NCBI RefSeq assembly: GCF_041381155.1
Contig: NC_091142.1
Location: 41,713,604 to 41,777,603 of the forward strand
Direction: 5' to 3'
Source of the DNA: Argopecten irradians
Lineage: Eukaryota > Mollusca > Bivalvia > Pectinida > Pectinidae
Length of the DNA stretch: 64,000 bases
Shown: piece by piece, positions 3,103 to 56,621 of the stretch
Position numbering within the stretch: the stretch's first letter is position 1
Layout: each line of letters opens with the position of its first letter
Made by a program: the position numbers and the translations under genes
Notes under the pieces: generated by a model
Told to the model about the DNA's origin: nothing
Database searches by the model: none
The model's input: the letters and a program-made list of their open reading frames with translations, nothing else

Positions 3103-3431
3103 TTAATAATGCTCCACCGCTGACAAATAGTATTTATTCTCACTAAAAGTCAGGAGCAGATGAATCAGTATTTTTCTTCAAAATTTACTTACTTTACACC
3201 ATTACCACCATTAAAATGTTTGAGCTTTTAATTCTCATCAAGATAAAAGTATTAGAAATTAATTGCACTCGGAAAAAAAATCTGCGATAATGTCCTAAAT
3301 GGAATGAAGTCCTGATTACGCATGTACCAAAATCAAAATAAGGTTTTTGTATTGTGTTTTAACAATTAGACATATTTACACAGTCATGATTAAACACCAA
3401 TTATTATTCAAATGATTAGTGTCGTTTATGC
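3103..3431 (+). mobile_element. TTAA-flanked MITE, copy A (3' end lost)
   Basis: Starts TTAATAATGCTCCACCGCTG and matches the complete copy at 13121-13484 through the internal block TTTACACCATTACCACCAT and the near-terminal TTTATGCTCTGTTGGCGG. The last bases of its right inverted repeat are missing where the next LINE begins. Confidence 0.75.
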
Positions 3432-4273
3432 TCTGTTGGCGGATAATAAAAGACTTAAGCAATGGCTCGCTTACCCACATTGATCTATCGTTGTGCCATC
3501 CATCAATTCTTCTGGATTATGATTGGATGGTCAACGATGATCTATGTAGGAGCGATCACTTTCCAATTAAACTAAAACACATACGGTTACCAAAACTTGA
3601 GGAACCTATTCCTCGTTGGAATCTATATAAGGCGGACTGGGTTCAATTTAAAACCTTGTGCGCAGAGGAGCTCATCGAGGATAAATGTTTGAACCTTGAT
3701 GACCCCATTAAAATTTTCACAGAAGCGCTCACTTCTATCGCTACAAAAACCATACCAAAATCCGTGCCAAAACCTACAAAGTTTCTTCTCTCAAATGATT
3801 CATTTATCAATAGATCTGGTAGAAATTCAGCTCTGAGGCGGTACTTGGCTTCGCGAACCGTCTCAAACTATAACAATTTTAAAATTTGGAGAGCAAAAGC
3901 TCGAATGTCTATCAAATCCGACAAGAAAAGTACTTGGAAAGAGTACGTCTCAAAAATTAACTCCAATACATCTTCGAAGAAAGTTTGGGAAATGATTGGT
4001 AAAATCAGTGGGAAAAGAAAAGCAACACCATCATCCCACATCATTAACAAAAATAAAGTATTTTCTTCAAAATCCAAAATAGCTGACGCCTTTGCCAAAA
4101 TGTATATGTTTTTAAAACAATTACCAGACTTTTCATTAAAATGTATTTTAACTATATTTAACCAAGTTTACTCTTCTGGCAAAATTCCCGAATCTTGGAA
4201 GGAATCTACTATTATACCCCTTCCGAAGGCCGGGAAAGATGCTACTGATGCCAATAACTATCGTCCAATATAA
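3432..4273 (+). pseudogene. LINE endonuclease C-terminus and RT start
   Basis: The frame begins within the endonuclease (THIDLSLC, then the catalytic-His block SDHFPI) and runs through the linker into the first RT block (ESWKESTIIPLPKAGK, then NNYRPI), where TAA ends it at 4271-4273. The true N-terminus is lost. A deletion inside the linker around residues 222-228 is likely, because the text from FAKMY to PDFSLK is shorter than usual in the family. Confidence 0.8.
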
Positions 4274-5219: not shown

Positions 5220-5381
5220 AGAGTCTCCATGTGGAAGCCAATGAGCCATCTCTAGACGATCGACGAAATAAATTATCCCAAAAACCCCGCATTCGATCTT
5301 GTATTTAATCCACAACACCAAGACATATTCAGACAAAATCAAAAGCTCATTCCAACATTTGGCATCAGAATTTCAAAGTTT

Positions 5382-6338
5382 TTGCAGGAACTAAATATAA
5401 ATTTCGACACCATTGACGAGTACACCATATCGGATGTACCACCATGGCTCGTTCAAACACCTGATATCAATTTATCTTTGCATGAGAGGGCAAAGTCCAG
5501 TGCATTACCCGAAGAACATAAATTCTCCGTTCGGGAGTGCATCAGAGCTTTCCCTGATCATGTCAAGATCTACACTGACGGCTCAAAAGATGGTGATAAA
5601 GTTGCGGCAGCATGCTGTACATCTAATCACTGTTCCTCTATCCGACTTCCAGATGTTGCCTCCATTTTCTCTGCAGAATCTTGTGCTATCGGTCTGGCCC
5701 TTGACCACATCGAAGAACACCGCATTGAAAAGGCAATCATCTGTTCAGACTCTCTTTCGGTTCTTCAAGCTTTGAAATCAAGATGCCCTAGAAATACTCT
5801 TATTCAAAATCTTTTAATCCGAACATTTCGATTTTCTTGTAAAACTCAAATTACTTATCTCTGGATTCCCAGTCATGTGGGTATAAAGGGGAATGAACAG
5901 GCTGATAAAGCAGCTAAGACTGCTCTTCGCCTAGCACAAACAGATTTGAAACTACCATACAGCGACATCAAACCTTCAATTCAGTCAGCCATCAAACACC
6001 ATTGGCAACAAAGGTGGTCTACCGAAACAAACAATAAACTGTTTAAAATTCAACCTACACTTAATCCTAAACTGTCCAGTCGGAGATACCGCAGAGAGGA
6101 AGTTGTTTTCTCTCGGCTCCGAACTAGACACATATATTTTACACATTCCTATCTATTGAGAGGGGAGTATACTCCCACATGCCATGCATGTGATTCTCCT
6201 CTCACAGTGGAACATATTTTAGTGCATTGTATTGATTTTAAGCACATACGAGATAAGTACTACACTTTGTTTCATGCCGTGAGACATAATCGTATTTTTA
6301 ATTATCTCAAAGAAATCGGTATTTTAAACAAAATATGA
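5382..6338 (+). CDS. LINE RNase H domain and C-terminal zinc knuckle (open frame)
   Basis: A 318-codon open frame forms the 3' part of the LINE ORF2. RNase H would remove RNA from the RNA/DNA hybrid during retrotransposition. The four acidic catalytic residues are visible: D66 (IYTDGSKDG), E99 (SAESCAIG), D123 (ICSDSLS) and D175 (NEQADKAAK), with H165 in WIPSHVGIKG. A C-terminal CHAC...H...C knuckle occupies residues 267-283. The ATG is internal: the homologous text begins upstream in other frames (PAFDLVFNPQHQ at about 5289). Long openness beside a broken RT suggests moderate age. Confidence 0.85.
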   Translation: MQELNINFDTIDEYTISDVPPWLVQTPDINLSLHERAKSSALPEEHKFSVRECIRAFPDHVKIYTDGSKDGDKVAAACCTSNHCSSIRLPDVASIFSAESCAIGLALDHIEEHRIEKAIICSDSLSVLQALKSRCPRNTLIQNLLIRTFRFSCKTQITYLWIPSHVGIKGNEQADKAAKTALRLAQTDLKLPYSDIKPSIQSAIKHHWQQRWSTETNNKLFKIQPTLNPKLSSRRYRREEVVFSRLRTRHIYFTHSYLLRGEYTPTCHACDSPLTVEHILVHCIDFKHIRDKYYTLFHAVRHNRIFNYLKEIGILNKI

Positions 6339-26835: not shown

Positions 26836-26960
26836 TAACAGGAGAGGAGAAAATGTAGCGGATTCGAACGCCGGACCCTCCGAACACTAGCCGAGTGCTC
26901 TACCGACTGAGCTACTTGGTCACCGATGATCGACCCAGTCCAATCCCGCTACACGCCTCC
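26836..26960 (-). mobile_element. tRNA-derived SINE, copy 1
   Basis: Read on the minus strand: GGTGACCAAGTAGCTCAGTC holds an A box, and GGCGTTCGAATCC is a B box, as in a tRNA gene. The end TTTTCTCCTCTCCTGTTACA is shared with the copies at 27037 and 52850. These tails and mismatched stems show SINE copies, not tRNA genes. Confidence 0.75.
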
Positions 26961-27036: not shown

Positions 27037-27175
27037 GTGCCAATTCTGTAACAGGAGAGGAGTTAATGTAGCGGCCAGACCGGGATTCGAACCCGGGACC
27101 CTCCGAATACTAGCCGAATGCTCTACCGAATGAGCTACCTGGTCACCGATGATCGACCTAGTCCAATCCTACGAT
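27037..27175 (-). mobile_element. tRNA-derived SINE, copy 2
   Basis: On the minus strand, GACCAGGTAGCTCATTCGGT...CCCGGGTTCGAATCCCGG folds as a near-complete tRNA with acceptor stem GACCAGG against TCTGGCC (one mismatch) and anticodon loop CTAGTAT (AGT). It ends in the same CTCCTCTCCTGTTACA tail as copy 1, about 80 bases away. Confidence 0.75.
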
Positions 27176-27189
27176 GGCCGACAGCGACC

Positions 27190-27345
27190 GTCACCTCGTA
27201 CACGCATATTAGAAAAATGTGTACCTGAAAAATGTGTACCATGACACCTTACACGAAAAATGTGTACCATCATATCACTTCGTACATGCGATTTGGGAAA
27301 ATGTGTACACGAAAAATGTGTCCAATCACAAATTGCATGTACACT
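27190..27345. repeat. Degenerate tandem repeat with GAAAAATGTGTACC
   Basis: Five or six variants of GAAAAATGTGTACC occur at irregular 15-50 base spacing, just upstream of the first exon of the HECT gene. Confidence 0.6.
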
Positions 27346-27535
27346 TTTTCTGTGACCTATAGCAATACCCCCTCAACCCATACTACTGTAATTAAATCGA
27401 CAGCATTCCAAAGCGCGATAAGGCGTGATTAATGAGTAGATATTGTTTCTGCGAGACGCAGACTCATCGCGCCGGGCTCTCGCACATTTACCTGGTGGGG
27501 GAAGAAGAAACCTCAGTTGTATTCAAAACTAAAAA

Positions 27536-27735
27536 ATGTAAGTTTTACATTCTATTAAATATCTTGTTATGAGTTGAAGTTTTATACAAAAATACAATTT
27601 CACGAAGGATATTGAATTTATTCACAAAACTTATTGATAGGTCTTACATATCTATACGGAACAGCGATGGAGAGGACTCTACAATTATCTACTTCTCAGT
27701 GCCTGCTGATGGGAATCTTACCCTCGATGATTTAC
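27536..27735 (+). CDS. HECT gene: split start codon and exon 2 (TDP-43-like N-terminal domain, first half)
   Basis: An upstream exon ends ...AAAAAAT before GTAAGTTT (donor at 27538), and the next exon starts at 27641 with G after TTATTGATAG. Joining AT to G makes ATG, giving MSYISIRNSDGEDSTI. This aligns by eye with the start of TDP-43 N-terminal domains (M-S-E-Y-I-R-V...). The exon ends at 27735 with one spare base before GTAAGT. The split-ATG reading is inference, supported by phase and by the family's usual start. Confidence 0.6.
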
Positions 27736-28278
27736 GTAAGTCTGGAAATATTACCACCGTGATGTCAACCGTTAAATATGAATTAAGTATGATCTTATTT
27801 TGTCTCTTGAAATCGATACAATTCTTATATAAAAAGAATCCGTTGTTATTCAAATTAGGACATGTATGGTCAATAATAAAGCGGAAGACTCTTAGTATTT
27901 ATACAAAATTGTCTTATCCGTGTGATTTTCAGTCTTGTAAATCTGCCTATGCTGGATTTGAAGTCGAACCACAACATTACAATACCTACATATGTATGTG
28001 TTTAAAACTGTGAAAACACTTCAATTCAGCTACAAGTGGAATGTTTTAAAGTGAAAAATATTTTATTACTGAATTTGAACATATCGCTTTAGAATCATGG
28101 ATATTTATTGTATCGACAAAAACACGTTTTACATTCACATTAAAAAAATAATAGCCATTTCGGATATGGAATGTACTTTCACTTTTCATTATTCTTATAG
28201 TTAACTGTAAAATGTGCAACCATAAACAGATGGATACAGCTCTTCTTATGCTTTATTGTAATATAATTTCACTTCTAG

Positions 28279-28431
28279 GAACTGCATTCCCTTGCGCAGC
28301 ATCATTTAGATATCGAGATCAAAATGACGACAAACAACACCATATTCCAAGCCGAGATAATGTATTTATCGAGCCGAATGGAGGGTGGCATCAGCAAGGA
28401 CGAATGTACCTTGCAGTAAATAATGTGCATA
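28279..28431 (+). CDS. HECT gene: TDP-43-like N-terminal domain, second half
   Basis: The acceptor is ACTTCTAG and the donor GTAAGTTG. The 50 full codons include TAFPCAASFRYRDQND and FIEPNGGWHQQGRMYLAVNN. These positions correspond to the TDP-43 pattern F-G-A-GLRYRN...L--P--GWGN-VYVVNY, with Gly-Trp and the final hydrophobic strand conserved. The TDP-43 N-terminal domain has a ubiquitin-like fold that drives self-association, so oligomerisation is a possible role. It is in phase 1 at both ends. Confidence 0.65.
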
Positions 28432-28672
28432 GTAAGTTGATTTATATCATAATGCAATAATTTACGATGAATTATCATATGCATTGAAATTTCCATCAAA
28501 TTACTTTGAAATGAACTAAGAACTAGCGATATGTATGATTCAATATAAATGACATTTTATATAATAAGTAAACATATATCAACATTGTATTTGGGATGGA
28601 AAAATGAATCTAAATATCGTTTATTGTGTACGTTTATCTATCATTTCTACCCACTGTCATTCATTTGAATAG

Positions 28673-28810
28673 ATTATGATGGAAATTGCTTTGGGATGTT
28701 TGAGTCATATCGTAGACGAGTGTCCACAAAGCGTAAAGATGGAGCTTCCAACAGAGCTTTAAAAAAAAAAAAAAAACCGCAAGAAAAAGAAAGATTCGGG
28801 AGTAGCAACG
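28673..28810 (+). CDS. HECT gene: basic linker exon (possible nuclear localisation signal)
   Basis: Bounded by TTTGAATAG and a weak donor GTATTG. Encodes RRRVSTKRKDG and, through a 16-A run, LKKKKKPQEKER, a dense basic segment resembling a bipartite nuclear localisation signal. Phase 1 in and out. The A-run is a natural site for indel error. TDP-43 also carries basic signals soon after its N-terminal domain, but this sequence is not directly alignable. Confidence 0.6.
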
Positions 28811-29151
28811 GTATTGTGTGTTTTAGATACTGCATATACTTAAAATTATTTTTAACGATTCGGTGTTACTGAAAAAGCAAGTTAAAATAAAAACAATAAA
28901 TGTATGATGAGCAACAATTGGACTAGCTGTCTTATGCATATTAAAGTTGTATTAGGTATGGTATGGATAGTATTGAAAAGGACCATTTCAAGTAAGTAAT
29001 GTTGATTTTATTGCAAAAAATTGTTAATTATCACAGGAATCGATTTTGGTCTTTGAATCATATATAGTATAAGTGATCAATAAAAGAATTAAAGATATTA
29101 AAGTGACATGATATCATCATGCTGTTAAAGATTAAAAACTTTTCATTTCAG

Positions 29152-29489
29152 GTTCGTATTGGTCGCGGCCATTTCAAAAATTGTGTATTTTCGAAGATCT
29201 CATCTACAAGCCTATCAGGATGTGGCGGAATCGTTATTGTAGGGCCATTTTCCAAACAGACAACACAGCTACTGAAATCAAACAAGCCGCATTTGAAAAA
29301 TTCTGTCAAAAGAGTAGAATGTTTCGGCAAAAATATAAACGATATAACCAATTTATCTTGTGTATCCTGATGGATCCCTTGATGTTAACTTGCCCGGATC
29401 AACGGAAGAATTTTCTTTGTTGGGATACAGAAACAGTTTAGACCCAAGCAAGCGTTTTGATAGACTCCGGCTCTACATTTGCTGCAAAG
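29152..29489 (+). pseudogene. HECT gene: exon 5, unknown domain, frameshifted
   Basis: The acceptor is TTTCATTTCAG and the donor GTCAGC after AAAG. The first frame reads SYWSRPFQKLCIFEDLIYKP and AFEKFCQKSRMFRQKYKRYN. Near 29358 the sense frame jumps to VYPDGSLDVNLPGSTEEF and FDRLRLYICC. Exon length is 338, two bases off the length needed to keep frame, so either one base is missing or two are extra. The first frame stops at TAG soon after. The domain is unknown to me. Its second half (Y-DG---LPGS-EEF-L--Y) may be part of a beta-grasp fold. Confidence 0.6.
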
Positions 29490-29849
29490 GTCAGCAAGTA
29501 GATGCGACAAAATTATTGTGTTTTTATCATAATAATAGAGTAATTATGATGATACATTGTATTGGTTGAGGATAGAATTACCTGTTTAGGCTAGCTAATA
29601 TTCCAATGGAATTAAAAAAACATTGTATCTCCTGAAGTAGATATAATAAAAATATTGAGACAAGACTTAGTTGTTGATGTAAACAATAGCAATTCATAAT
29701 ACAGTTATTTCATTACATGTCTTAAGATGGGCTTTCAATACAATAATTACAAAATAGTATCACAGCAGCAACAAAATATATGTATTGCTTAACTCTTTGG
29801 TTTTCACTAAAATAGCTTGATAGGTTATAATTCGCCTGCTTTTTTCCAG

Positions 29850-30046
29850 ACAACTACGACTTAAATGCAGTAGAAATTTTGACCGATGACTCAAGTTCAT
29901 CCGATGAATTGCCTAGCTTATCTGTCAGGACATCAAGACATGATACAGACCAAAACAATGAAACGATCCCACTGACAGTCGATGTGAGGTTCTATTACAA
30001 AGAAGAGCAATTCACTAAAAGCTTTCCAAACAATACCAAAGGTTCG
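29850..30046 (+). CDS. HECT gene: exon 6, acidic Ser-rich linker
   Basis: The acceptor is CTTTTTTCCAG and the donor GTAAGTAA. It begins with two bases completing GAC and ends in phase 0. Encodes ILTDDSSSSDELPSL, which resembles a casein-kinase-2 target or SUMO-interacting stretch, then TVDVRFYYKEEQFTKSF, which starts a strand-turn-strand unit continued in the next exon. Confidence 0.6.
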
Positions 30047-30453
30047 GTAAGTAAATGCATTACGGAACTAAGTTACATTGTATCTGTAGATAATGCAAAG
30101 ACCATTAATTATGTCTGTTGCAGACAATTTTGCATTCTATGTGGAGTCATACATATAATCATTCGACAAATGTGTGTCACCGTATGCAATTTATACTTGA
30201 TACCTTTTAGATGATAGCAGGTAGCAGGCACAGACATGACATCTTCAGTTTACATCTTATTTTATTTTGTAATTTTCTATAACTGAAATTAAAATGATTG
30301 GTTGATAATGAGACTATAATTTAGAGCATGCCATACAAAACAGCCGATGTTCCCAATTCCCATTTTACACAGTCCACCTCTGTCATCTAAGGTCTTTGTT
30401 ATTTGACCTCTTCCTTCACTATTTATAGCGTTTTGTTATTGTTTCTTCTTCAG

Positions 30454-30611
30454 GCTGTCATGAGCTATTTGAAAGGGCGATTGCAATTGGATAATGCAGC
30501 CTTTTTGATGAAAATAAAGGATAGCGACAAGGTCATACTCCCTAGCGACAGGTTGCTGGATGTCTCCGGAAATGATACAGTCATACGTGTTGACGTGGAG
30601 CCCCAAATAAG
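30454..30611 (+). CDS. HECT gene: exon 7, ubiquitin-like region
   Basis: The acceptor is CTTCTTCAG. The exon keeps phase 0 in and leaves two bases at the end. Encodes SYLKGRLQLDNAAFLMKI, then VILPSDRLLDVSGNDT and VIRVDVEPQI. Strand, helix and strand order with a central L--R-L--VSG turn suggests a beta-grasp (ubiquitin-like) fold spanning exons 6 and 7. This is judged from pattern only. Confidence 0.55.
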
Positions 30612-30832
30612 GTTCGACAAACATATTTTCCCCTCAAAAATAAAAGTTAAAGCTAACAAACACATAGATATTTGGCACTGGTAGATTGGACATCGGTTAA
30701 TATAATCTGAAGTATGGGAGGATTTCTCTGTTAATGCCGGTAATGTATTAAATTAAATGCATAATTAAATAGATATAATTGGATCATACATTGTAAAATA
30801 ATGAAACTTATGTTTGATTTAATTTCTTGCAG

Positions 30833-30936
30833 TGTCACCCGACCGGTTACACCTTCAGACCACTTACGTGCAAATGAAAACGTAGACGACACGCATATTG
30901 CAGAGGAGATTGTCAACAACACACTACCTCTAATGA
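30833..30936 (+). CDS. HECT gene: exon 8, linker to the HECT domain
   Basis: The acceptor is AATTTCTTGCAG. The first base completes AGT with exon 7. Encodes TRPVTPSDHLRANENVDDTH and IAEEIVNNTLPLMK. The 3' boundary is uncertain: a GTTATT donor after AAA gives phase 0, but the HECT exon needs phase 2. A better GTATGT donor farther on lies after an in-frame TAG. The mismatch is another sign of decay. Confidence 0.45.
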
Positions 30937-31030
30937 AAGTTATTTACGATTTTAAAGAATTGTAGCCTCGTATGTCTGGTATTAGTATTACATTTTAATC
31001 AAAACTGTATAACTTTTCAATGTATTTCAG

Positions 31031-31398
31031 GAGCGGAGTTTCGGACCCGACGTCAACGTTGCGAATATTTCAACAATTGTTCCTTCAGGGACGCCAATTG
31101 GACGTCGAAGATGTATCAACAGTAATGGAAGGGGACACTTCCCCCATATTCATCAGTAGACACAATCTGTTTGCGGAAAATTGCGAAGAATTGGAATTAA
31201 TTTCCAATATTCGCTTTCCGATGGAAGTAAACTTCCATATTGAAGCTGCGGCGGATTATGGTGGTCTACGGAAAGAATAGTTCGAATCCATGGTTAAGGA
31301 AATAATTGAAAGATTGATTCGGGAAGATGGGCATTCTCTAAGGAAAGTAGAAGAAGCGTTGGCACGTCATCACTACTATAAGGTGGGGCTTGTCATTG
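31031..31398 (+). pseudogene. HECT gene: exon 9, HECT N-lobe start with in-frame TAG
   Basis: The acceptor is GTATTTCAG and the donor GTAAGTTG. Encodes TSTLRIFQQLFLQGRQ, NIRFPMEVNFHIEAAADYGG and LRKE, followed by TAG and FESMVKEIIERL. HECT domains have the hallmark -V-F-GE-A-D-GGPRREFF here, so TAG stands exactly where the first Phe of REFF is expected. One or two substitutions would account for it. After the stop the frame continues open and ends in phase 1, compatible with exon 10. Confidence 0.7.
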
Positions 31399-31959
31399 GT
31401 AAGTTGTTTTGTACAATATCTATTTATTGTAAACTAATTGTCCCTAATAGAATATGATGTTGAAAACATAGCTAGCTAGAGAACAAATGATTTCGTAAAA
31501 TGTATTTTTACAACAGGTGTATAAAGGATATGTTTAAAGTAGTTAGATTACGAAGTATTGTATTGGTAATATGAGCCGAAGCCTCGAATGAGCTATGATG
31601 TTACACGTCGTGCGAGATTAGATTGATATAATTTGTATTAAAATACCGTGCCGCTAATGATTGCATATTTCTTCGTTTTAATAGAGCGGTTTTCGGCTAT
31701 TTTATTTTTCATACCTACTTCGCGTTAATTGGGCCACATCAGACCTAGCCCAACGGACCTAATTGCCATAAATCTTTACTTGACTTGGAGGGAGGGGGAC
31801 ATTTAGGTACTGAGGGCTCGTGGTGTACTTAAACTCGTTAATTACTCCCAACGCCGGACTGAACACTGCTAGCCTTCTGCTAACTGTCCCCTAACACCCA
31901 CATGCTCCCTTATTGGACACTAATTATAAAAGAATATAGTTCTACAGATTAAACGTTAT

Positions 31960-32450
31960 GCCCTGCAGATACGTTGTTATAATTGTACCTGCTGCCCCTA
32001 TCTATTCATGATCGTAAAAGGCGACTAGATCTTTTCTTCTTCCTAATTGACTTTGTTCTTCCTAACATTTCCATTGACATCGCCTCACTTTTGGCCATCG
32101 ATTGAGCGCTTGCCCCTGTGTGGTAGGCTCTGGGTTCTGGCCGAGACACACCAAAGTCTATTAAAGTGGTAGTTTCTGCTTCTGTTTATCGTTCAGCATA
32201 CAGGGAGTAGGACGACTGGTTGGCCCGTTGTCAGTATAATGTGACCGGGTGGGGTGTGTGGCTTGGTGTCTTCAGTGGCATGCCTCAGTGATATAGCACT
32301 ATAAAAAGGGTAATATTTCCATTATACAAGAAGACACAAAACCAATGTACCGCAGACTCCCAAAACATCACCCCGCACTTCATACACGCTACATACTGCA
32401 TACATCACCATAGCTGTAAATAGGACGTTAAAATAATCAAACAAACAAAT
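31960..32450 (+). mobile_element. SINE with tRNA-like head and (CAAA)n tail
   Basis: GGCTCTGGGTTCTGGCCGAG holds a B-box-like sequence near 32135. The body includes GGCCCGTTGTCAGTATAATG and CACTATAAAAAGGG. The tail reads AGGACGTTAAAATAATCAAA then CAAACAAAT, like the 3' end of the RNase H LINE at 6570-6603 and the SINE at 40465. Body sequence is familiar from bivalve SINEs (from memory). Confidence 0.65.
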
Positions 32451-32494
32451 AACTACTACACACTAATGAGTATTAACTAAGAATTCTACACTAG

Positions 32495-32607
32495 GATCCG
32501 AGGTGCAGTGATCATTATTGGCACCTCAGGTGAAATACTGCGGCGTGTGTATGATATAACCGATTTTGGAAATCAAAGCGTGGTAATAAAGATAAATGAG
32601 ATTCCAA
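32495..32607 (+). CDS. Candidate orphan exon, unknown
   Basis: An AG acceptor (TTCTACACTAG) and GTAAGA donor bound an open frame with VIIIGTSGEILRRVYDITDF and GNQSVVIKINEIPS. It sits inside the long intron of the HECT gene but its phase does not fit between exons 9 and 10. It resembles single blades of beta-propeller repeats. May belong to an unseen gene or be chance. Confidence 0.25.
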
Positions 32608-32994
32608 GTAAGACTGGTCTAATATTTAGCTCTTGGTTAAAATGTATCGAACTGTGTATCAAAAGTACGTTGAAGGTCAATTTGAAACTGTATACATCAT
32701 CTGTAGCCATGATGACTTTTGGATGATTAACTGTTACATTTTTTGAACAGTTAGGGAGAACTTATATTTTTTTACAAGAGTACAATGTCTTTATTAAAAC
32801 TTCTATTAAAGCAATTTCGTCAATGCATTGTCTTAGTTGATAACACTGTAAACCGTAATAATTTTTTTTCAGTGGAAAATAATTTTACAGTTTTATTTCC
32901 AAATGATGTGATGTTTTGATTAGCTGAGGACACTCTGATACCGGACACCAGGAATATTCGAAAAAAATAATGATGTAAAGCTAGTATTGGTTAA

Positions 32995-33150
32995 ATATGT
33001 GTACAACAAAATGTTCACTGATTTGATATATGTATAACAAAATGTTCACTGATTTGATATATGTACAACAAAATGTTCACTGATTTAATATATGTACAAC
33101 AAAATGTTCACTGATTTGATATGTTTCCAACAAAGTGTTCAATAAATATT
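32995..33150. repeat. 34-bp minisatellite, about 4.5 units
   Basis: Units of ACAACAAAATGTTCACTGAT and TTGATATATGT repeat with few changes. Confidence 0.92.
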
Positions 33151-34059
33151 CTTAAACTGTCGCAAAGCCTGCAAAAATAATTATCTCTTTATTTTTTGTT
33201 CTGATAATACCGATATGTTCCATGAGGTTTAGTTCAATCATATTAAGAACCGGAGAGTGGAAACGATGCATTTTATGTATCTTTCCATGTTATATGATGC
33301 AGAAATCATCATAACAACAACTCGTTTGTTACAAATGCAAAACACGTGATGGTGTACTTGCTTATTTCCTTTGTTCTTCAAAGGGAGTATTAGTGTGAGA
33401 GTGAGAGTGTCCTAGACAAATACCTTTGATTACCGCATATCAAATCCCTCGACAGTAATCACAAAGTTGCCGATACAAATTTGAATGTTTGACTAATGTG
33501 TAGTTAACAGTTTACAGTAGTTAACAGTAGCTTGCAGAATTTTAGCACTTGGTATCTTTTACTTAATACGACTAAGACCACATTAAGATTTCGAAAATGC
33601 ATTTTGTAAATGTAGGCAACACTAACGGATTTAGAATCCACTATATAAGTAAAACCTGATCCGCTTGTCTCTCCTGTTATGGCTTAGCCATGGGCGACCT
33701 AATAATCCCACCAGAAAGCAATTAAGAAGGGGGAGGAAGGAAGCGGGGGCTTTGTTACTGCGATAACAGTGCTTTGTGTGTAGATGTTTCAATTACGTTA
33801 TATTTATTTTCAATTACATTTAAACTGTTAATTAGGTAATGACTGTTTGAAATATTAAGGATTCAAGTAATGACTGATAATTAACGCACCGGGATTTCAT
33901 AATGTTGTGTTCTCGACCCGCTTTTTAGAAATGTCACAAATAAAAGAAATAAAACAAATGTATAACTCAACACAATTGCACAACTCATCTAGACTACATT
34001 TATTATAATGCATCCAAGTCAGTTTCCAAATCTGTTTCCTGATTGATTGATTGATTGAT
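33151..34059. other. HECT gene intron, nothing recognised
   Basis: AT-rich sequence without motifs, inside the 5.3-kb intron between exons 9 and 10. Confidence 0.4.
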
Positions 34060-34310
34060 GGATGGTGCTTTACATCATTGCTCTGTTTAAAACCGAGCGG
34101 AGCTGGGACACTTATAAAGTTTCCTTCGTCTATCTGCTCTTTATATATCCCTCCAGAACTGTGCGATGTGGAGGAATGGGTTTTAGTTTAGGTTTCAGAC
34201 CTAAAACCCATTAATCACTCCCAATCCCGGACAGAGCACCGCGAGACCAGCAAAATTAATCTGCGGTACCTAATCCATCCCCTAACACTCATCTAGACAC
34301 TAATAACATA
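34060..34310. repeat. Dispersed repeat shared with about 31700-31935
   Basis: CACTCCCAATCCCGGACAGA and TCCCCTAACACTCATCTAGA correspond to ACTCCCAACGCCGGACTGAA and TCCCCTAACACCCACATG at 31845-31905. Two diverged copies of one repeat lie 2.4 kb apart in the same orientation. Confidence 0.55.
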
Positions 34311-36687
34311 CAAGTTGCTTAAAAAAGGAAAAGCAATACGTAAGGCAAATTAGTAGTGTGAATATCTACAGTTAGCTTACCTGTTAAATGTTTTTGAAAC
34401 TATCAAATGTAATTAGAAAATCATGCCCATACAAAACAGTTATTTATTTATAGTTATGCTACACAACCAATATGTTTATAAGTCTACAGGTACCAAATAC
34501 GTGTGCCAGAAAATAATCCCTTCATCAGAACAACTTTGTCGATGGATTTCATATAAAAATAAAGGGACTAAAATCACATTGACTTCCTTCAGACACGTTT
34601 TTTTCCCATTTTCATTATCAACCTTTATTATTTTTTTTTAATCTCAAATGTACATTTTTTAATTTGCATTGTCGGCTTAAGTCGGGATAAATTTGTAAAA
34701 CTGTTATCGCAATCTGGTATGTTTCAAGTAATTAAAAACGCTTAGTAATCATCTTAAGAAACAGTTTATCATGTTTGTTGGATTCAAAATGAAAGACTAA
34801 AATATACCGTACTTCGAATTTGCTCATTGAATTATTTCGAAAGCATTAGCTATGTTAAAACAATTAACATATCCAAAAATGACCTAAATGTATATTGAAT
34901 AAAATATTTGAAGTGTTGTTCAGTAAAATAAGCTATTGTGATGATTTTACTAACAAAAAACTAGATGTATATGTAATGACATTGCATATAATCATCGACA
35001 AACACAAAAATGTTTAAGAGTGTTTGAAAAAGTAATTGTAATGAGTTTAATTATTAATGTATGGACAATCTTAAACATTTGCTAAAATTCACAACTTTTA
35101 CAATTCAAATTTCCAAAGATTTTGAAGCGTTTCAGTATCTTTTCAAAACGGTTTGAATGTATGAAATTTAAAATTTTAACAGTGAAACAGCAACACTGAC
35201 AGCAAAACCTAGCGCATACTTCTCCTTGCTTATTTTGATTCCATATAAACGAATAAACGTTTGGAAACTAGTACAGGAACATACACTATAATCAAACTAA
35301 TATCTCTTTATAATCCAATTGTATAGTTTTCTTATTTAATATTACTTTTCCCATATGCTTAGCATACTCTGTAATAATCTTGTTTTTTAACTTTTGAATA
35401 TCAAATATTAGATATATATATAACATTTATAGTTTCATGTTACCGGTACCTACATTCCAAAAAGGATGCATTAGTGTACTGTGTCCTATTCACACATGTC
35501 ATGTGCATCTTATTTCCTATATTTGGTTGTTAAACACATGTTAAATGCTGACATTAATATACCAATATATAATGTTACAGGATAATTATAGTACTCTAAC
35601 ATATTCCGACTCAAAGTCAAACCAAACCAATAGCTCACAATACATGTTGCTTCTTAAATAGACTAAGTATATTAACAGCAAGTGGGTCCCGCTCAAGACC
35701 TTTTACCGAAAGTTCCCTACACATGTATTTTTCTAGTCAAATCACATCGTTGTGTTAATAACTTAATTATAATACAATCTATTTCTTAAGTAGAGAAGTT
35801 ATCCACTAAGGGACAATTATATCTACTACGAGCCATGATATTCAAGAGGCATCTCTACACAAGCCAAGACAGGCTTCCTTTTGATGAAGCTTTCAGCCGA
35901 ATTCTTAAAGAAATGCATTTTACGTATTAAATGCAGCAATCAGATATATAAATGTGTATTTGTGATGATACTGGTCTAAGCGCATTTTTATAGGTATAGA
36001 ATCTGGTGTATACACCTGGCGAGATAAACAACAGTATTAGTGTGTAATTGACAGCATGCTGACCCCACTGAAGACCTTTTACCTGAAGTCCTCTATACTA
36101 GCGAATGCGGATATTTGATTAGTCTATGGTCTATGGACGGAACTAACTATATACTGCGTTGGGCATCACGCCCTACGCAATGAAAATACTTTCAAAGCGG
36201 ATTGCACGCTAATTGCTACATACCAATGTATATTACCTAGGTATTCTGAAATACTTAATTGCTACTGAAAACTATAGATTTTATACTTTTATATCCAATT
36301 GACAATACTGAGATAGGTTTCACTAATTTACATAAAAATGTACATCGTTAATCATATGGTCAATTTGTGATGTCAACTACATGTATATAACAATAAACAT
36401 AGATAATCATTATTCAATAAAAAAAAATATTCAATCTACTACTGTGCTACGAAACAAACCATTGCTTGTATTTGAGTTTAACTATGGTTAAAACAGACGA
36501 AACAGTCAAAAGACTAGCTGAGATGTTAATATCCCCATGGTGTTCATTAAATGACGCATAAATAGTATGTTCTAAATTTGTAATATTGTGTTGAATTAAA
36601 GGAATTTTGTAATATGTAATAGTACTAATGTTGCTCATGAGTTTCACAAGATTGTTTTACTTTTGATTAATATTGTGTTTTGTACAG
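34311..36687. other. HECT gene intron, nothing recognised
   Basis: Only short frames. No exon of the PAN-PLAT type is seen upstream of its last-exon copy at 37404. Confidence 0.4.
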
Positions 36688-36806
36688 GACTCACCGCTTT
36701 ACAAGGCGGTCCTTGTGTGGAATTTCTACACGCGATCCTCCAGGGTCAACCTAGTGATGAACTTAGACAATTTCAAAAAGGCCTAGCAAGAACTGGAATA
36801 TTGAGA
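36688..36806 (+). CDS. HECT gene: exon 10, HECT N-lobe continuation
   Basis: The acceptor is TTTTGTACAG and a possible donor is GTAGTT. Joined to exon 9 the text reads VIGLTALQGGPCVEFLHAIL, matching the HECT segment usually written LG-A--HGGP---FL-P. It then continues DELRQFQKGLARTGIL. The phase-1 join is exact. No later HECT exon is recognised, so the catalytic Cys lobe is absent from the window on this strand. Confidence 0.65.
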
Positions 36807-37072
36807 GTAGTTATTTCATGTTTCATAAAATATACTATTTCTTCATTACTTGTTGAACTTTTGAGAGAACAAATTAGATAATGTATAACATATGGTATAT
36901 AGCCAATGTATGTTAAATATAAATGCATGTCAACCAATGCTTATATTTACAATAGCTTACAGAGCTTAACTGCCAATGTTAAAACTGGAAAATATCATAC
37001 AATGGGCTTAGAAGCAACATGTATGTACCGTGCAGTGGTAATGTAAACATATGTCATTGTTCTCCAGAGTCT

Positions 37073-37360
37073 TTGTATAACCCATCCTCGACACTCCAGG
37101 GGTTCCGATCACTTACGATCTAAACACCCCTAGAATGTATCATAGTAAAACTGGAGGCAATATAACAGGTAATTTAATCATTTGATGCACACCGACAGAG
37201 CCGTATAGCTTTGTTGTTGGGCGTCGCTCTTTCTGTTGTCTTCAAAGAAAATCGTTGCATGCCTCTGATTGGTTTAGATGTTTTCCGGTGAGCTGCCTTC
37301 AGTTTTACTATGAGATCGTTAGTGATTGGAACCCCTGGAGTATCGAGGATGGGTATAATC
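37073..37360. mobile_element. Short inverted-repeat MITE
   Basis: Arms of about 45 bases with few mismatches: CATCCTCGACACTCCAGGGG (37083-37102) and its inverse CCCCTGGAGTATCGAGGATG (37332-37351), each extended by GTTCCGATCACTTACGATC-like sequence. The loop is about 200 bases. It lies just upstream of the exon copy at 37404. Confidence 0.75.
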
Positions 37361-54760: not shown

Positions 54761-55364
54761 AATGATATCCGAAATTGTTTCTCACCGTCGTTGGTTGCTT
54801 GTGGCCTTGAGGAATTTGCATTAAAATATGATACTGCCAAGCAGACTCTGGAGGAGAAAGTGATTTACACTTATTCATTGACAAGTAAATCAAGGAGAAA
54901 TGTCTCTGAGAATGTCTCTCTGTTACAATGTCAGTCCTTCTTCCTCAAGGAACTGTAGGCACCTCTTCAGCCATTCCAAATCCATATTGTAAGAGGTTTT
55001 TTAACTTAATTACACTGTAACAAATAATAGAGATTGATAGTTTACACATTACAGATGATATTTATTATTACGTGTGGCTATTGAGTTTTGAATGAAGATA
55101 CAAAATTATTTCAATAGAGTTAAATAGTATAAAAAATTAACTTACCGGTAATTATTACAAATACATAGTTATTGCAACTTTCTCAAAATATTGTCAACCA
55201 ATGTAATTAACGGGTACAGATGGACCAAGAAGATAAACAGTTTACAAAACACTTTCATTATGCCATTTATCATTGCAAATAAACTATAATTAAAATAACA
55301 ATATCCTTATATTAATTGATCATCTTATGATCGTATTACCTGAATAAGTTGGTCATCAAATCAG
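54761..55364. other. Upstream of the PLE fragment, nothing firm
   Basis: A minus-strand frame MDLEWLKRCLQFLEEEG (54985-54935) could be part of the same unknown gene. Otherwise AT-rich. Confidence 0.3.
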
Positions 55365-56621
55365 GTGAAATTAAACGTACACAAAGTTTATGTGGATGAC
55401 CAGAACCTTGTTGTGGAGGCGTTACCACCAGGTAGTAGGTTTGTTGAGAACAAGATCGTGATTGTGGATGAATTGGTGGAGAGGGATAGAATAAGACCAG
55501 CAGATGAGAGGACGGCGCAGATAATTAAAGAGGTTGCCAACTTAGTATGCCCCTATACAAGAATGGAGGTTGACTATCCATCGGCCCATGATTCTGGATG
55601 GATGCCGTTGCTGGACATTCAGGTCCAAATTCGCGACGCGGATGGGTCTGTGGACTGGAAGTTCTACAATAAAGAGGTTTCCAGCTCACAATTCATCCTC
55701 AATCGCAGTGAACTCCCTGTGTCCGTGAAACGCCAATCCCTAATTCAGGACGGCATACGCCGATTGCGTAACACCAGACCATCTTTGGTACCAGAACTGC
55801 GCCAAGAGCTTATGGAGGATCTTGCAGAGATGATGCTGATCTCAGGATACCCAGAGTCTTTTAGGGCCAATGTAATCATTGCTGCCCTCAGAGGCTATGC
55901 CAATCAGGTGTCCGCGAGCGGGCGTGGTGATACGCCACTATATCGGCATAGATCTTGGGAGGAGAATGAGCGCAGGTCTAGGAAGAACGTGAAAAAGGCT
56001 TCGTGGTTTCGACCAGCTGACACCGTAATTTTTGTACCATCAACTCCTGGTGCAGAACTTGCCAGACGTGTACGAGGGGTGACAGCGGTACAGGGGCCCA
56101 GACTTGACGTGAATATCAGGGTGGTTGAAACTGGTGGGCAGACGATCAAGCAACAACTTGTTCGTACCGACACTAAATTTGGTGATGAGTGTCAAAGAGG
56201 AGAGTGTGTGTTGTGTCAGAGCAACCCTGGTTCTGGTGGTGGGTCATTACATTTCCGGTCCGGTGCGCTGTACAAAGCCACATGCAAAATCTGTGCCAAG
56301 CACAACACAGTGGCCGAGTACACTGGTGAAACCGGCCGAAATGCCTATACCCGGTTCCAGGAACACAAGCGCCAAGTAGAGAGTGGTAATCTCTCTAATG
56401 CTCTGGCTAAGCACTTGCTCGAAGAACACCCAGGAGACGAAGGTGACATTAGAAACTTCAAGTGTGAAGTCCTCAAGACCTTCTCCAAGCCACTCGAACG
56501 ACAAGTTTCAGAGGCGGTCGCTATACACGGATCAGTTGCTGACAAGCTCCTCAATTCTAAGTCAGAATGGGAGCAACCTGCCGTAGAGAGATTGGTGGTC
56601 ACTAGGGAACCACGACTGTGA
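55365..56621 (+). CDS. Penelope-like element, 3' half: RT (YVDD), zinc finger and GIY-YIG nuclease
   Basis: The 418-codon frame is open to TGA. VYVDDQNLVVE (8-18) is the RT catalytic block. WMPLLDIQVQI (79-89) and FYNKEVSSSQF (100-110) follow as in PLE thumb regions, then SGYPESFRANVI. C276, C281 and C284 with C307, C310 and H313 make a finger before the nuclease. AEYTGETGRNAYTRFQEH (317-334) is the GIY-YIG block, and E383 is a candidate catalytic Glu. The upstream RT fingers and palm are missing, so the copy is 5'-truncated or split. The ATG is internal. Its GC-rich codons contrast with the AT-rich surroundings, which suggests a fairly young insertion. Confidence 0.75.
   Translation: MKLNVHKVYVDDQNLVVEALPPGSRFVENKIVIVDELVERDRIRPADERTAQIIKEVANLVCPYTRMEVDYPSAHDSGWMPLLDIQVQIRDADGSVDWKFYNKEVSSSQFILNRSELPVSVKRQSLIQDGIRRLRNTRPSLVPELRQELMEDLAEMMLISGYPESFRANVIIAALRGYANQVSASGRGDTPLYRHRSWEENERRSRKNVKKASWFRPADTVIFVPSTPGAELARRVRGVTAVQGPRLDVNIRVVETGGQTIKQQLVRTDTKFGDECQRGECVLCQSNPGSGGGSLHFRSGALYKATCKICAKHNTVAEYTGETGRNAYTRFQEHKRQVESGNLSNALAKHLLEEHPGDEGDIRNFKCEVLKTFSKPLERQVSEAVAIHGSVADKLLNSKSEWEQPAVERLVVTREPRL

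What the first reader, a model, noticed from the sequence alone, without database searches (positions are those of the whole stretch)
27536..36806. A TDP-43-type N-terminal domain apparently fused to a HECT ubiquitin ligase
Spliced exons place a domain that aligns by eye with the TDP-43 N-terminus (M-S-Y-I start, F-YRYRD-like centre, GGW and a final AVNN strand) ahead of a basic stretch, a ubiquitin-like region and a HECT N-lobe (ADYGG, then LQGGP). I know of no described TDP-43-N/HECT fusion. If real it would be an invertebrate E3 ligase family with a self-associating N-terminus.
Basis: partly seen in the sequence, partly recalled or inferred. Interest (0 to 1): 0.75.

Follow-up and report, generated by a model that had tools for sequence, protein, structure and literature searches.

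The report
TDP-43-like ubiquitin ligase in a transposon
The odd fusion of a TDP-43-type domain with a ubiquitin ligase is real, but the copy here is a broken piece of a jumping gene: intact relatives sit inside DNA transposons beside a transposase, so the ligase probably serves the transposon rather than the animal.

Summary
The domains are there. Exons 27641-28431 match Pfam TDP-43_N above its cut-off (33.8 vs 27.1 bits). The window's HECT part alone gives no Pfam hit, but paralogues in the same genome with the same exon order have HECT domains above cut-off with the catalytic cysteine. The window copy is dead: two frameshifts in exon 4, a TAG in the HECT N-lobe, no C-lobe exons found.

It is transposon DNA. 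A terminal inverted repeat starts at 27170, before the gene. The C6 copy has this repeat at both ends and a 6-bp target duplication. The repeat occurs 101 times in the genome, control 0; 14 of 20 short inverted pairs have exact 6-bp duplications. A convergent DDE transposase (Pfam rva_4) lies 2-6 kb downstream of 11 of 46 HECT C-lobe matches. These are published marks of IS3EU transposons. A second, diverged TDP-43_N/HECT set, one with the transposase shown, exists. Most TDP-43 polymer-interface residues are lost, so self-association is unsupported. What the ligase does is inferred.

The parts
27170..36904 (+). 5' part of a decayed IS3EU-like DNA transposon (right end missing)
   Evidence: DNA homology to the C467 copy starts at exactly 27170 and its last collinear piece ends at 36904; terminal repeat at the start; no right-hand repeat in the window or the next 9.4 kb
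27170..27194 (+). start of the left terminal inverted repeat, TACGATGGCCGACAGCGACCGTCAC
   Evidence: 0 mismatches to the pattern, 0.00 expected in shuffles; 101 places in the genome
27536..27537 (+). AT of a start codon split by an intron (rest in exon 1), inferred
   Evidence: donor GTAAGT follows; join gives M-SYISIRN; same phase in the C7 copy
27641..27735 (+). exon 1, first half of the TDP-43_N domain
   Evidence: PF18694 33.8 bits over exons 1-3; borders
28279..28431 (+). exon 2, second half of the TDP-43_N domain
   Evidence: 57% identical to the C6 copy
28673..28811 (+). exon 3, basic stretch with a poly-A run; 3' border uncertain
29152..29489 (+). exon 4, conserved domain of unknown kind, broken by two frameshifts
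   Evidence: matches other copies in three frames; two one-base gaps against the C62 copy
29850..30046 (+). exon 5
   Evidence: tblastn to C62, C610, C700, C6
30454..30611 (+). exon 6, possible ubiquitin-like/PB1 half (unproven)
   Evidence: PB1 12.8 bits below cut-off; matched in other copies by position only
30833..30961 (+). exon 7
   Evidence: GT-AG borders and open frame; not queried in the other copies beyond, which found only the window
31031..31398 (+). exon 8, start of the HECT N-lobe
   Evidence: 44-54% identical over the part before the stop to C6, C8, C610, C2 and C7 exons with DxGGPRxE; profile to PDB HECT ligases, best 2e-12
31278..31280 (+). in-frame TAG in exon 8
36688..36806 (+). 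exon 9, HECT N-lobe piece (LTALQGGP...)

Best explanation
27170 to about 36904 is the 5' part of a decayed copy of a large IS3EU-like DNA transposon. Relatives with both ends are 16.7-22.8 kb, end in inverted repeats TACGATGG...CCATCGTA, and the family makes 6-bp target duplications. They carry two convergent multi-exon genes: a DDE (integrase-core) transposase, and an accessory protein with a TDP-43_N domain, a basic linker, a conserved unknown domain and a HECT domain with the catalytic cysteine. Shown: domains, exon order, transposon ends, target duplications, transposase, decay of this copy, and constraint on one exon of the accessory gene between element copies. Inferred: the accessory protein is an active E3 ligase that helps the transposon, most likely by ubiquitinating a host silencing or repair factor or the element's own transposase complex, with the TDP-43_N and unknown domains choosing the target. 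I put about 0.35 on that functional step; the confidence given is for the identity.
For: TDP-43_N above cut-off. HECT above cut-off in C2, C6, C610, C16 and C598 copies and AREL1 at 2e-12 by profile, both lobes. Terminal repeats at both ends of the C6 copy with CCAGAC on both sides; left end found in 8 of 10 copies; homology of window and C467 begins at the repeat. 101 genomic ends, reversed control 0; exact 6-bp duplication in 14 of 20 inverted pairs against 2 of 380 swapped pairs. Transposase rva_4 6.5e-25 and 3.1e-17; 11 HECT/transposase neighbour pairs, all convergent, 2.0-5.8 kb apart. Exon 4 constraint: pN 0.24-0.37, pS 0.73-0.98 in 15 pairs. IS3EU marks from PMC10045372 (passages).
Against: Of three copies with both ends found, only C6 has a matching target duplication; C8 and C610 do not. 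No left end found near the C7 and C16 copies, and C610 and C2 ends carry 5 mismatches. No terminal repeats found for the second family. 35 of 46 HECT C-lobe matches have no transposase match within 12 kb, though both searches scored only best candidates. HECT of C7 is below the Pfam cut-off (17.0 bits). Activity, expression and mobility are untested.
Confidence: 0.9

Rival explanations
1. An ordinary host E3 ligase gene family with a self-associating TDP-43-like N-terminus, spread by gene duplication.
For: Real domains, conserved exon order and constraint on exon 4.
Against: Inverted repeats enclose the C6 copy with a target duplication; 11 copies have a convergent transposase; the window copy is broken; most chain-interface residues are lost.
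Confidence: 0.05
2. The TDP-43_N/HECT gene is a neutral passenger captured by the transposon, without a role in its spread.
For: Several copies are broken (window, C610, C16, C62, C467); no function is known.
Against: Gene order and orientation recur in 11 pairs and in a second diverged family; exon 4 shows few amino-acid against saturated silent changes between copies.
Confidence: 0.25
3. The TDP-43_N domain joins or caps host TDP-43 chains and brings the ligase to RNA-processing bodies.
For: Same fold family as TDP-43; head-to-tail assembly of that domain is reported for TDP-43 (PMC5491494 and PMC5830921, passages). The acidic residue at position 14 is kept in 6 of 6 readable copies.
Against: Residues of both chain faces (17 and 21; 52 and 55) and Q34 are replaced or gapped in the copies read; position 48 is D or E in 4 of 7, resembling the S48E change reported to block assembly.
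Confidence: 0.07

Closest known systems
IS3EU (IS3EU/GingerRoot) DNA transposons
   Same: TA..TA ends, 6-bp target duplications, integrase-core DDE transposase (criteria from PMC10045372 passages). Fungal IS3EU elements also carry extra genes, TET/JBP and alpha-kinase (PMC12730594 passages).
   Different: The extra gene here is a TDP-43_N/HECT protein; neither paper's main text contains HECT or ubiquitin. The tree position was not tested and Repbase was not available.
TDP-43 N-terminal domain
   Same: Pfam TDP-43_N above cut-off; 8 of 10 PDB hits of the family profile are TDP-43, best 2.6e-4.
   Different: Joined to HECT, split over two exons, most chain-interface residues replaced.
HECT E3 ligases (AREL1 the best PDB match)
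   Same: N-lobe DxGGPRxE and C-lobe TC motifs in the paralogues.
   Different: Diverged; encoded in a transposon; the window copy has only N-lobe pieces.

Membership tests
IS3EU DNA transposon | TA..TA termini | tested here: met
   TACGATGG...CCATCGTA at both ends of C6 and C8 and of the 20 pairs fetched, one of which starts TACAATGG
IS3EU DNA transposon | 6-bp target duplication | tested here: met
   exact in 14 of 20 short pairs, at most 1 mismatch in 18 of 20; swapped control 2 and 5 of 380; exact in C6, absent in C8 and C610
IS3EU DNA transposon | IS3-like integrase-core DDE transposase | tested here: met
   rva_4 6.5e-25 (C6) and 3.1e-17 (C610), joined exon translations; exons with HVDG, DPGTEN, IEAWW. 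The window copy itself lacks it.
IS3EU DNA transposon | transposase groups with IS3EU in a tree | not testable with these tools
   no IS3EU reference sequences held
TDP-43_N domain family (PF18694) | profile match above the gathering cut-off | tested here: met
   window 33.8 bits against 27.1; second family 31.2; C7 26.3 and C6 26.2 just below
TDP-43_N domain family (PF18694) | head-to-tail chain interface residues of TDP-43 | tested here: not met
   positions 17, 34, 52, 55 replaced in all copies read, 21 proline or gap; 14 kept as D/E. Not a requirement of the Pfam family.
HECT E3 ligase | HECT profile match | tested here: met
   C2 35.5, C6 36.5, C610 33.8, C16 27.2, C598 37.2 bits against 23.9; C7 17.0 below; window alone none
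HECT E3 ligase | catalytic cysteine in the C-lobe | tested here: met
   TxTC or TxSC motif in C7, C2, C6, C610, C16; absent from the window because the C-lobe exons are missing
HECT E3 ligase | ubiquitin transfer activity | not testable with these tools
   needs protein
Ubiquitin-like/PB1 domain (exons 5-6) | profile or structure match | tested here: inconclusive
   PB1 12.8 bits against 23.6; 0 PDB hits

The most novel reading that the evidence does not exclude
A class of animal IS3EU-like transposons encodes its own HECT ubiquitin ligase with a TDP-43-like targeting domain, kept under selection and present in at least two diverged element families, as a counter-defence that ubiquitinates a host genome-defence or repair factor; the TDP-43_N fold has thus been reused outside TDP-43 in mobile DNA.
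Probability: 0.4. Interest if true: 0.8.

Novelty: new variant of a known kind. Interest (0 to 1): 0.62.

Why it matters
It turns an apparent new host ligase into a transposon accessory gene, explains why such genes occur in scattered copies, and gives a testable case of a transposon carrying its own ubiquitin ligase. It warns that 'TDP-43_N/HECT' gene models in invertebrates may be mobile DNA, and it separates the TDP-43_N fold from TDP-43's polymer interface.

Tried and rejected
Pfam on the window's own HECT pieces found no HECT. Viral contigs hold no relative of the TDP-43_N region or of exon 4 by the tool's test. Profiles of exon 4 and of exons 5-6 gave no convincing solved structure. Structure prediction was not used: its rule admits window proteins read in one frame, and the useful proteins need exon joining or come from other loci. 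A search for inverted repeats of the second family between its two fetched stretches gave nothing. Paper searches for TDP-43 with HECT in molluscs, bivalves or by domain architecture, for HECT family expansion in bivalves, and for HECT with transposons returned 0 papers; TARDBP_N/TDP43_N gave 8 papers, none on this by title; IS3EU/HECT was searched only as either/or. Repbase was not searchable, so an existing entry cannot be excluded. In the interface table position 76 was dropped, because the alignment puts V, not N, there even in the host TDP-43 genes.
Full report
Observation. Exons at 27641-27735 and 28279-28431, joined in phase behind a start codon split by an intron, give a TDP-43_N domain: PF18694, E 3.1e-8, 33.8 bits against a cut-off of 27.1. 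The HECT claim is weaker on the window alone: Pfam finds no HECT in the exon 7-9 pieces, although all 5 PDB matches up to E 10 are HECT ligases aligned at the start of the N-lobe (E 0.86-1.5).

Paralogues settle the architecture. The window lies in an 845.8-Mb assembly (G000:C9:41713604-41777603). The TDP-43_N query matched 14 exon places; exon 2 of the C6 copy matched 10. Of ten exon blocks that I queried (1-6, 8-11; exon 7 not), tblastn found all ten in order in the C6, C8 and C7 copies. That count is partly by construction, because the queries included exons of C6, C7 and the window, and the C7 exon 5 match is weak (E 0.14). The independent check is ORF against ORF between copies: in C7, nine blocks (all but exon 6) match at least one other copy at E 1e-4 or better (output cut; C7 section seen whole). 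Exon 6 is matched by position only. C2 lacks exons 1 and 6, but its exon 1 matches C7. C610 lacks exon 6 and has two stops in exon 8. C16 gave exons 2, 4, 5 (with a stop) and 11, and a doubtful exon 3. C700 was fetched only in part. HECT: C2 35.5 bits, C6 36.5, C610 33.8, C16 27.2, cut-off 23.9; C7 is below it at 17.0. A profile of four HECT rows, the window's among them, matched 68 PDB sequences at E up to 1; the 60 shown are all named HECT ligases, best AREL1 at 2e-12 with N-lobe and cysteine-bearing C-lobe aligned. A profile of seven TDP-43_N rows gave 10 hits, the best 8 all TDP-43 (best 2.6e-4); the window sequence alone gave 7 TDP-43 chains among 10 hits, best E 0.032. In C7 and C6 the Pfam TDP-43_N score is just under cut-off (26.3, 26.2).

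The window copy is dead. Its exon 4 matches the other copies in three frames and has two one-base gaps against C62. TAG at 31278-31280 interrupts exon 8; exons 5-9 are otherwise one open frame across GT-AG joins. C-lobe exons 10 and 11 are not found in the window or the next 9.4 kb (only an E 0.55 match). C62 and C467 are close relatives (90-96% DNA identity in the collinear pieces) and are also damaged. DNA homology of window and C467 begins at exactly 27170 and its last collinear piece ends at 36904.

It is mobile DNA. The C6 and C8 copies are 97-99% identical over about 22 kb on two chromosomes. C6 is bounded by inverted repeats beginning TACGATGGCCGATAGCGGCCGCCAC and by CCAGAC on both sides, an element of 22,776 bp. 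C8 (22,536 bp) and C610 (16,675 bp, left end with 5 mismatches, right end with 2) have both ends but no matching target duplication. The left end was found 0.4-2.1 kb before exon 1 in 8 of 10 copies: window, C6, C8, C610, C2, C700, C62, C467; not in C7 or C16. In the window it starts at 27170 without mismatch; none is expected by chance. With up to 2 mismatches it occurs 53 + 48 times in the genome; the reversed control 0 times. From the listed places I picked by eye 20 inverted pairs 0.5-5 kb apart and fetched their flanks: 14 of 20 have an exact 6-bp duplication, 18 of 20 at most one mismatch, against 2 and 5 of 380 swapped pairs. I take these for short non-autonomous derivatives; their insides were not read.

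The transposase. On the opposite strand, downstream of the HECT gene, conserved exons occur in C6, C8, C7, C610, C16 and C467; C2 and C700 were not fetched far enough. Exons with HVWHVDG, QSDPGTEN and RIEAWWS can supply a D, D, E triad (the triad reading is mine). Joined exon translations give Pfam rva_4 (integrase core) at 6.5e-25 for C6 and 3.1e-17 for C610. Genome-wide, 46 HECT C-lobe matches and 34 transposase matches form 11 pairs within 12 kb, all convergent and 2.0-5.8 kb apart; the other 35 HECT matches have no transposase match within 12 kb, and both searches scored only their best candidates.

A second family. Pfam TDP-43_N also finds, besides three TDP-43-like genes (112.9-116.1 bits), eight other places. 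Seven of them (L037-L043) are 93-99.6% identical at the DNA level where they align, with TDP-43_N at 31.2 bits. Of 18 TDP-43_N places examined (ten of the first family, eight others), 9 have a HECT C-lobe match downstream on the same strand within 25 kb, three of them in the second family (C4 twice, C598). At C598 the HECT C-lobe (37.2 bits) is followed by a convergent transposase (rva_4 75.3 and 189.5 bits in two ORFs; HTH_21 below its cut-off). I found no terminal repeats for this family in the stretches held. A third lineage at C5:8.24 Mb has an exon 1 match (E 1e-5), but no exon 2 match, upstream of its HECT C-lobe.

Classification. PMC10045372 (abstract and passages) states that complete IS3EU families always have TA..TA termini and usually 6-bp target duplications. 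PMC12730594 (passages) reports fungal IS3EU elements with TAYGG..CCRTA ends that carry TET/JBP and alpha-kinase genes. The element here meets the terminus, duplication and integrase-core criteria; the tree test could not be run. The name IS3EU came to me from memory and was then checked in those papers. Neither main text contains HECT or ubiquitin.

How it may work. Shown: domain order, transposon structure, and constraint on exon 4 between element copies (pN 0.24-0.37 with pS 0.73-0.98 over 15 pairs of six copies; dS is saturated, so dN/dS could be computed for 2 pairs only, 0.13 and 0.15). Inferred: the protein is an E3 ligase that helps the element. By analogy with the published proposal that transposon-borne TET/JBP helps fungal elements escape silencing, I think anti-silencing or repair control most likely. 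TDP-43-type chains are unlikely: of the interface residues named in PMC5491494 (passages), positions 17 (6 of 6 readable copies), 34, 52 and 55 (7 of 7) are replaced, 21 is proline in three and gapped in three, 45 is D in 7 of 7, and 48 is D or E in 4 of 7. Against this, position 14 stays acidic in 6 of 6. The three host TDP-43 genes keep E17, E21, Q34, N45, R52 and R55. Another mode of association is not excluded.

Limits. No expression data, no other animal genomes, no Repbase. The paper searches found no description of the fusion or of a HECT-bearing transposon, but they cover open-licence papers only.

Noticed in passing
window 27071-27144 (-): tRNA-Thr (AGT) gene or copy whose 5' end lies 25 bases from the transposon's left end; by eye a similar partial copy lies just upstream (about 26850-26950).
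   Followed up: no
G000:C6:20760604-20783379 and G000:C8:17923083-17945618: Two 97-99% identical full-length elements on different chromosomes; only C6 has a matching target duplication.
   Followed up: partly
L037-L043 (C16, C598, C4 three times, C1071, C5): A second TDP-43_N gene family in seven copies, 93-99.6% identical in DNA; at C598 a HECT C-lobe and a convergent transposase lie downstream.
   Followed up: partly
L033-L035 (G000:C2:35591755, C1:25688306, C2:61728093): Three genes with full TDP-43_N domains of 113-116 bits, that is three TDP-43-like paralogues in one genome; RNA-binding parts not checked.
   Followed up: no
L015 2467-3096 (-) and L017 3023-3626 (-): On contigs C62 and C467 another HECT exon 8/9 pair lies on the opposite strand upstream of the window-like copy, so elements sit side by side there.
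   Followed up: no
window 3416-4273 and 5256-6338: Long ORFs that look like pieces of a non-LTR retrotransposon (recalled resemblance, not searched); similar pieces occur on C62 and C467.
   Followed up: no
window 55344-56621: 425-aa ORF that looks like the end of a Penelope-like or GIY-YIG element (recalled resemblance, not searched).
   Followed up: no
window about 37065-37355: By eye an inverted repeat (CCATCCTCGACACTCCAGGGG ... CCCCTGGAGTATCGAGGATGG) just past the point where the element homology ends, perhaps another small transposon.
   Followed up: no
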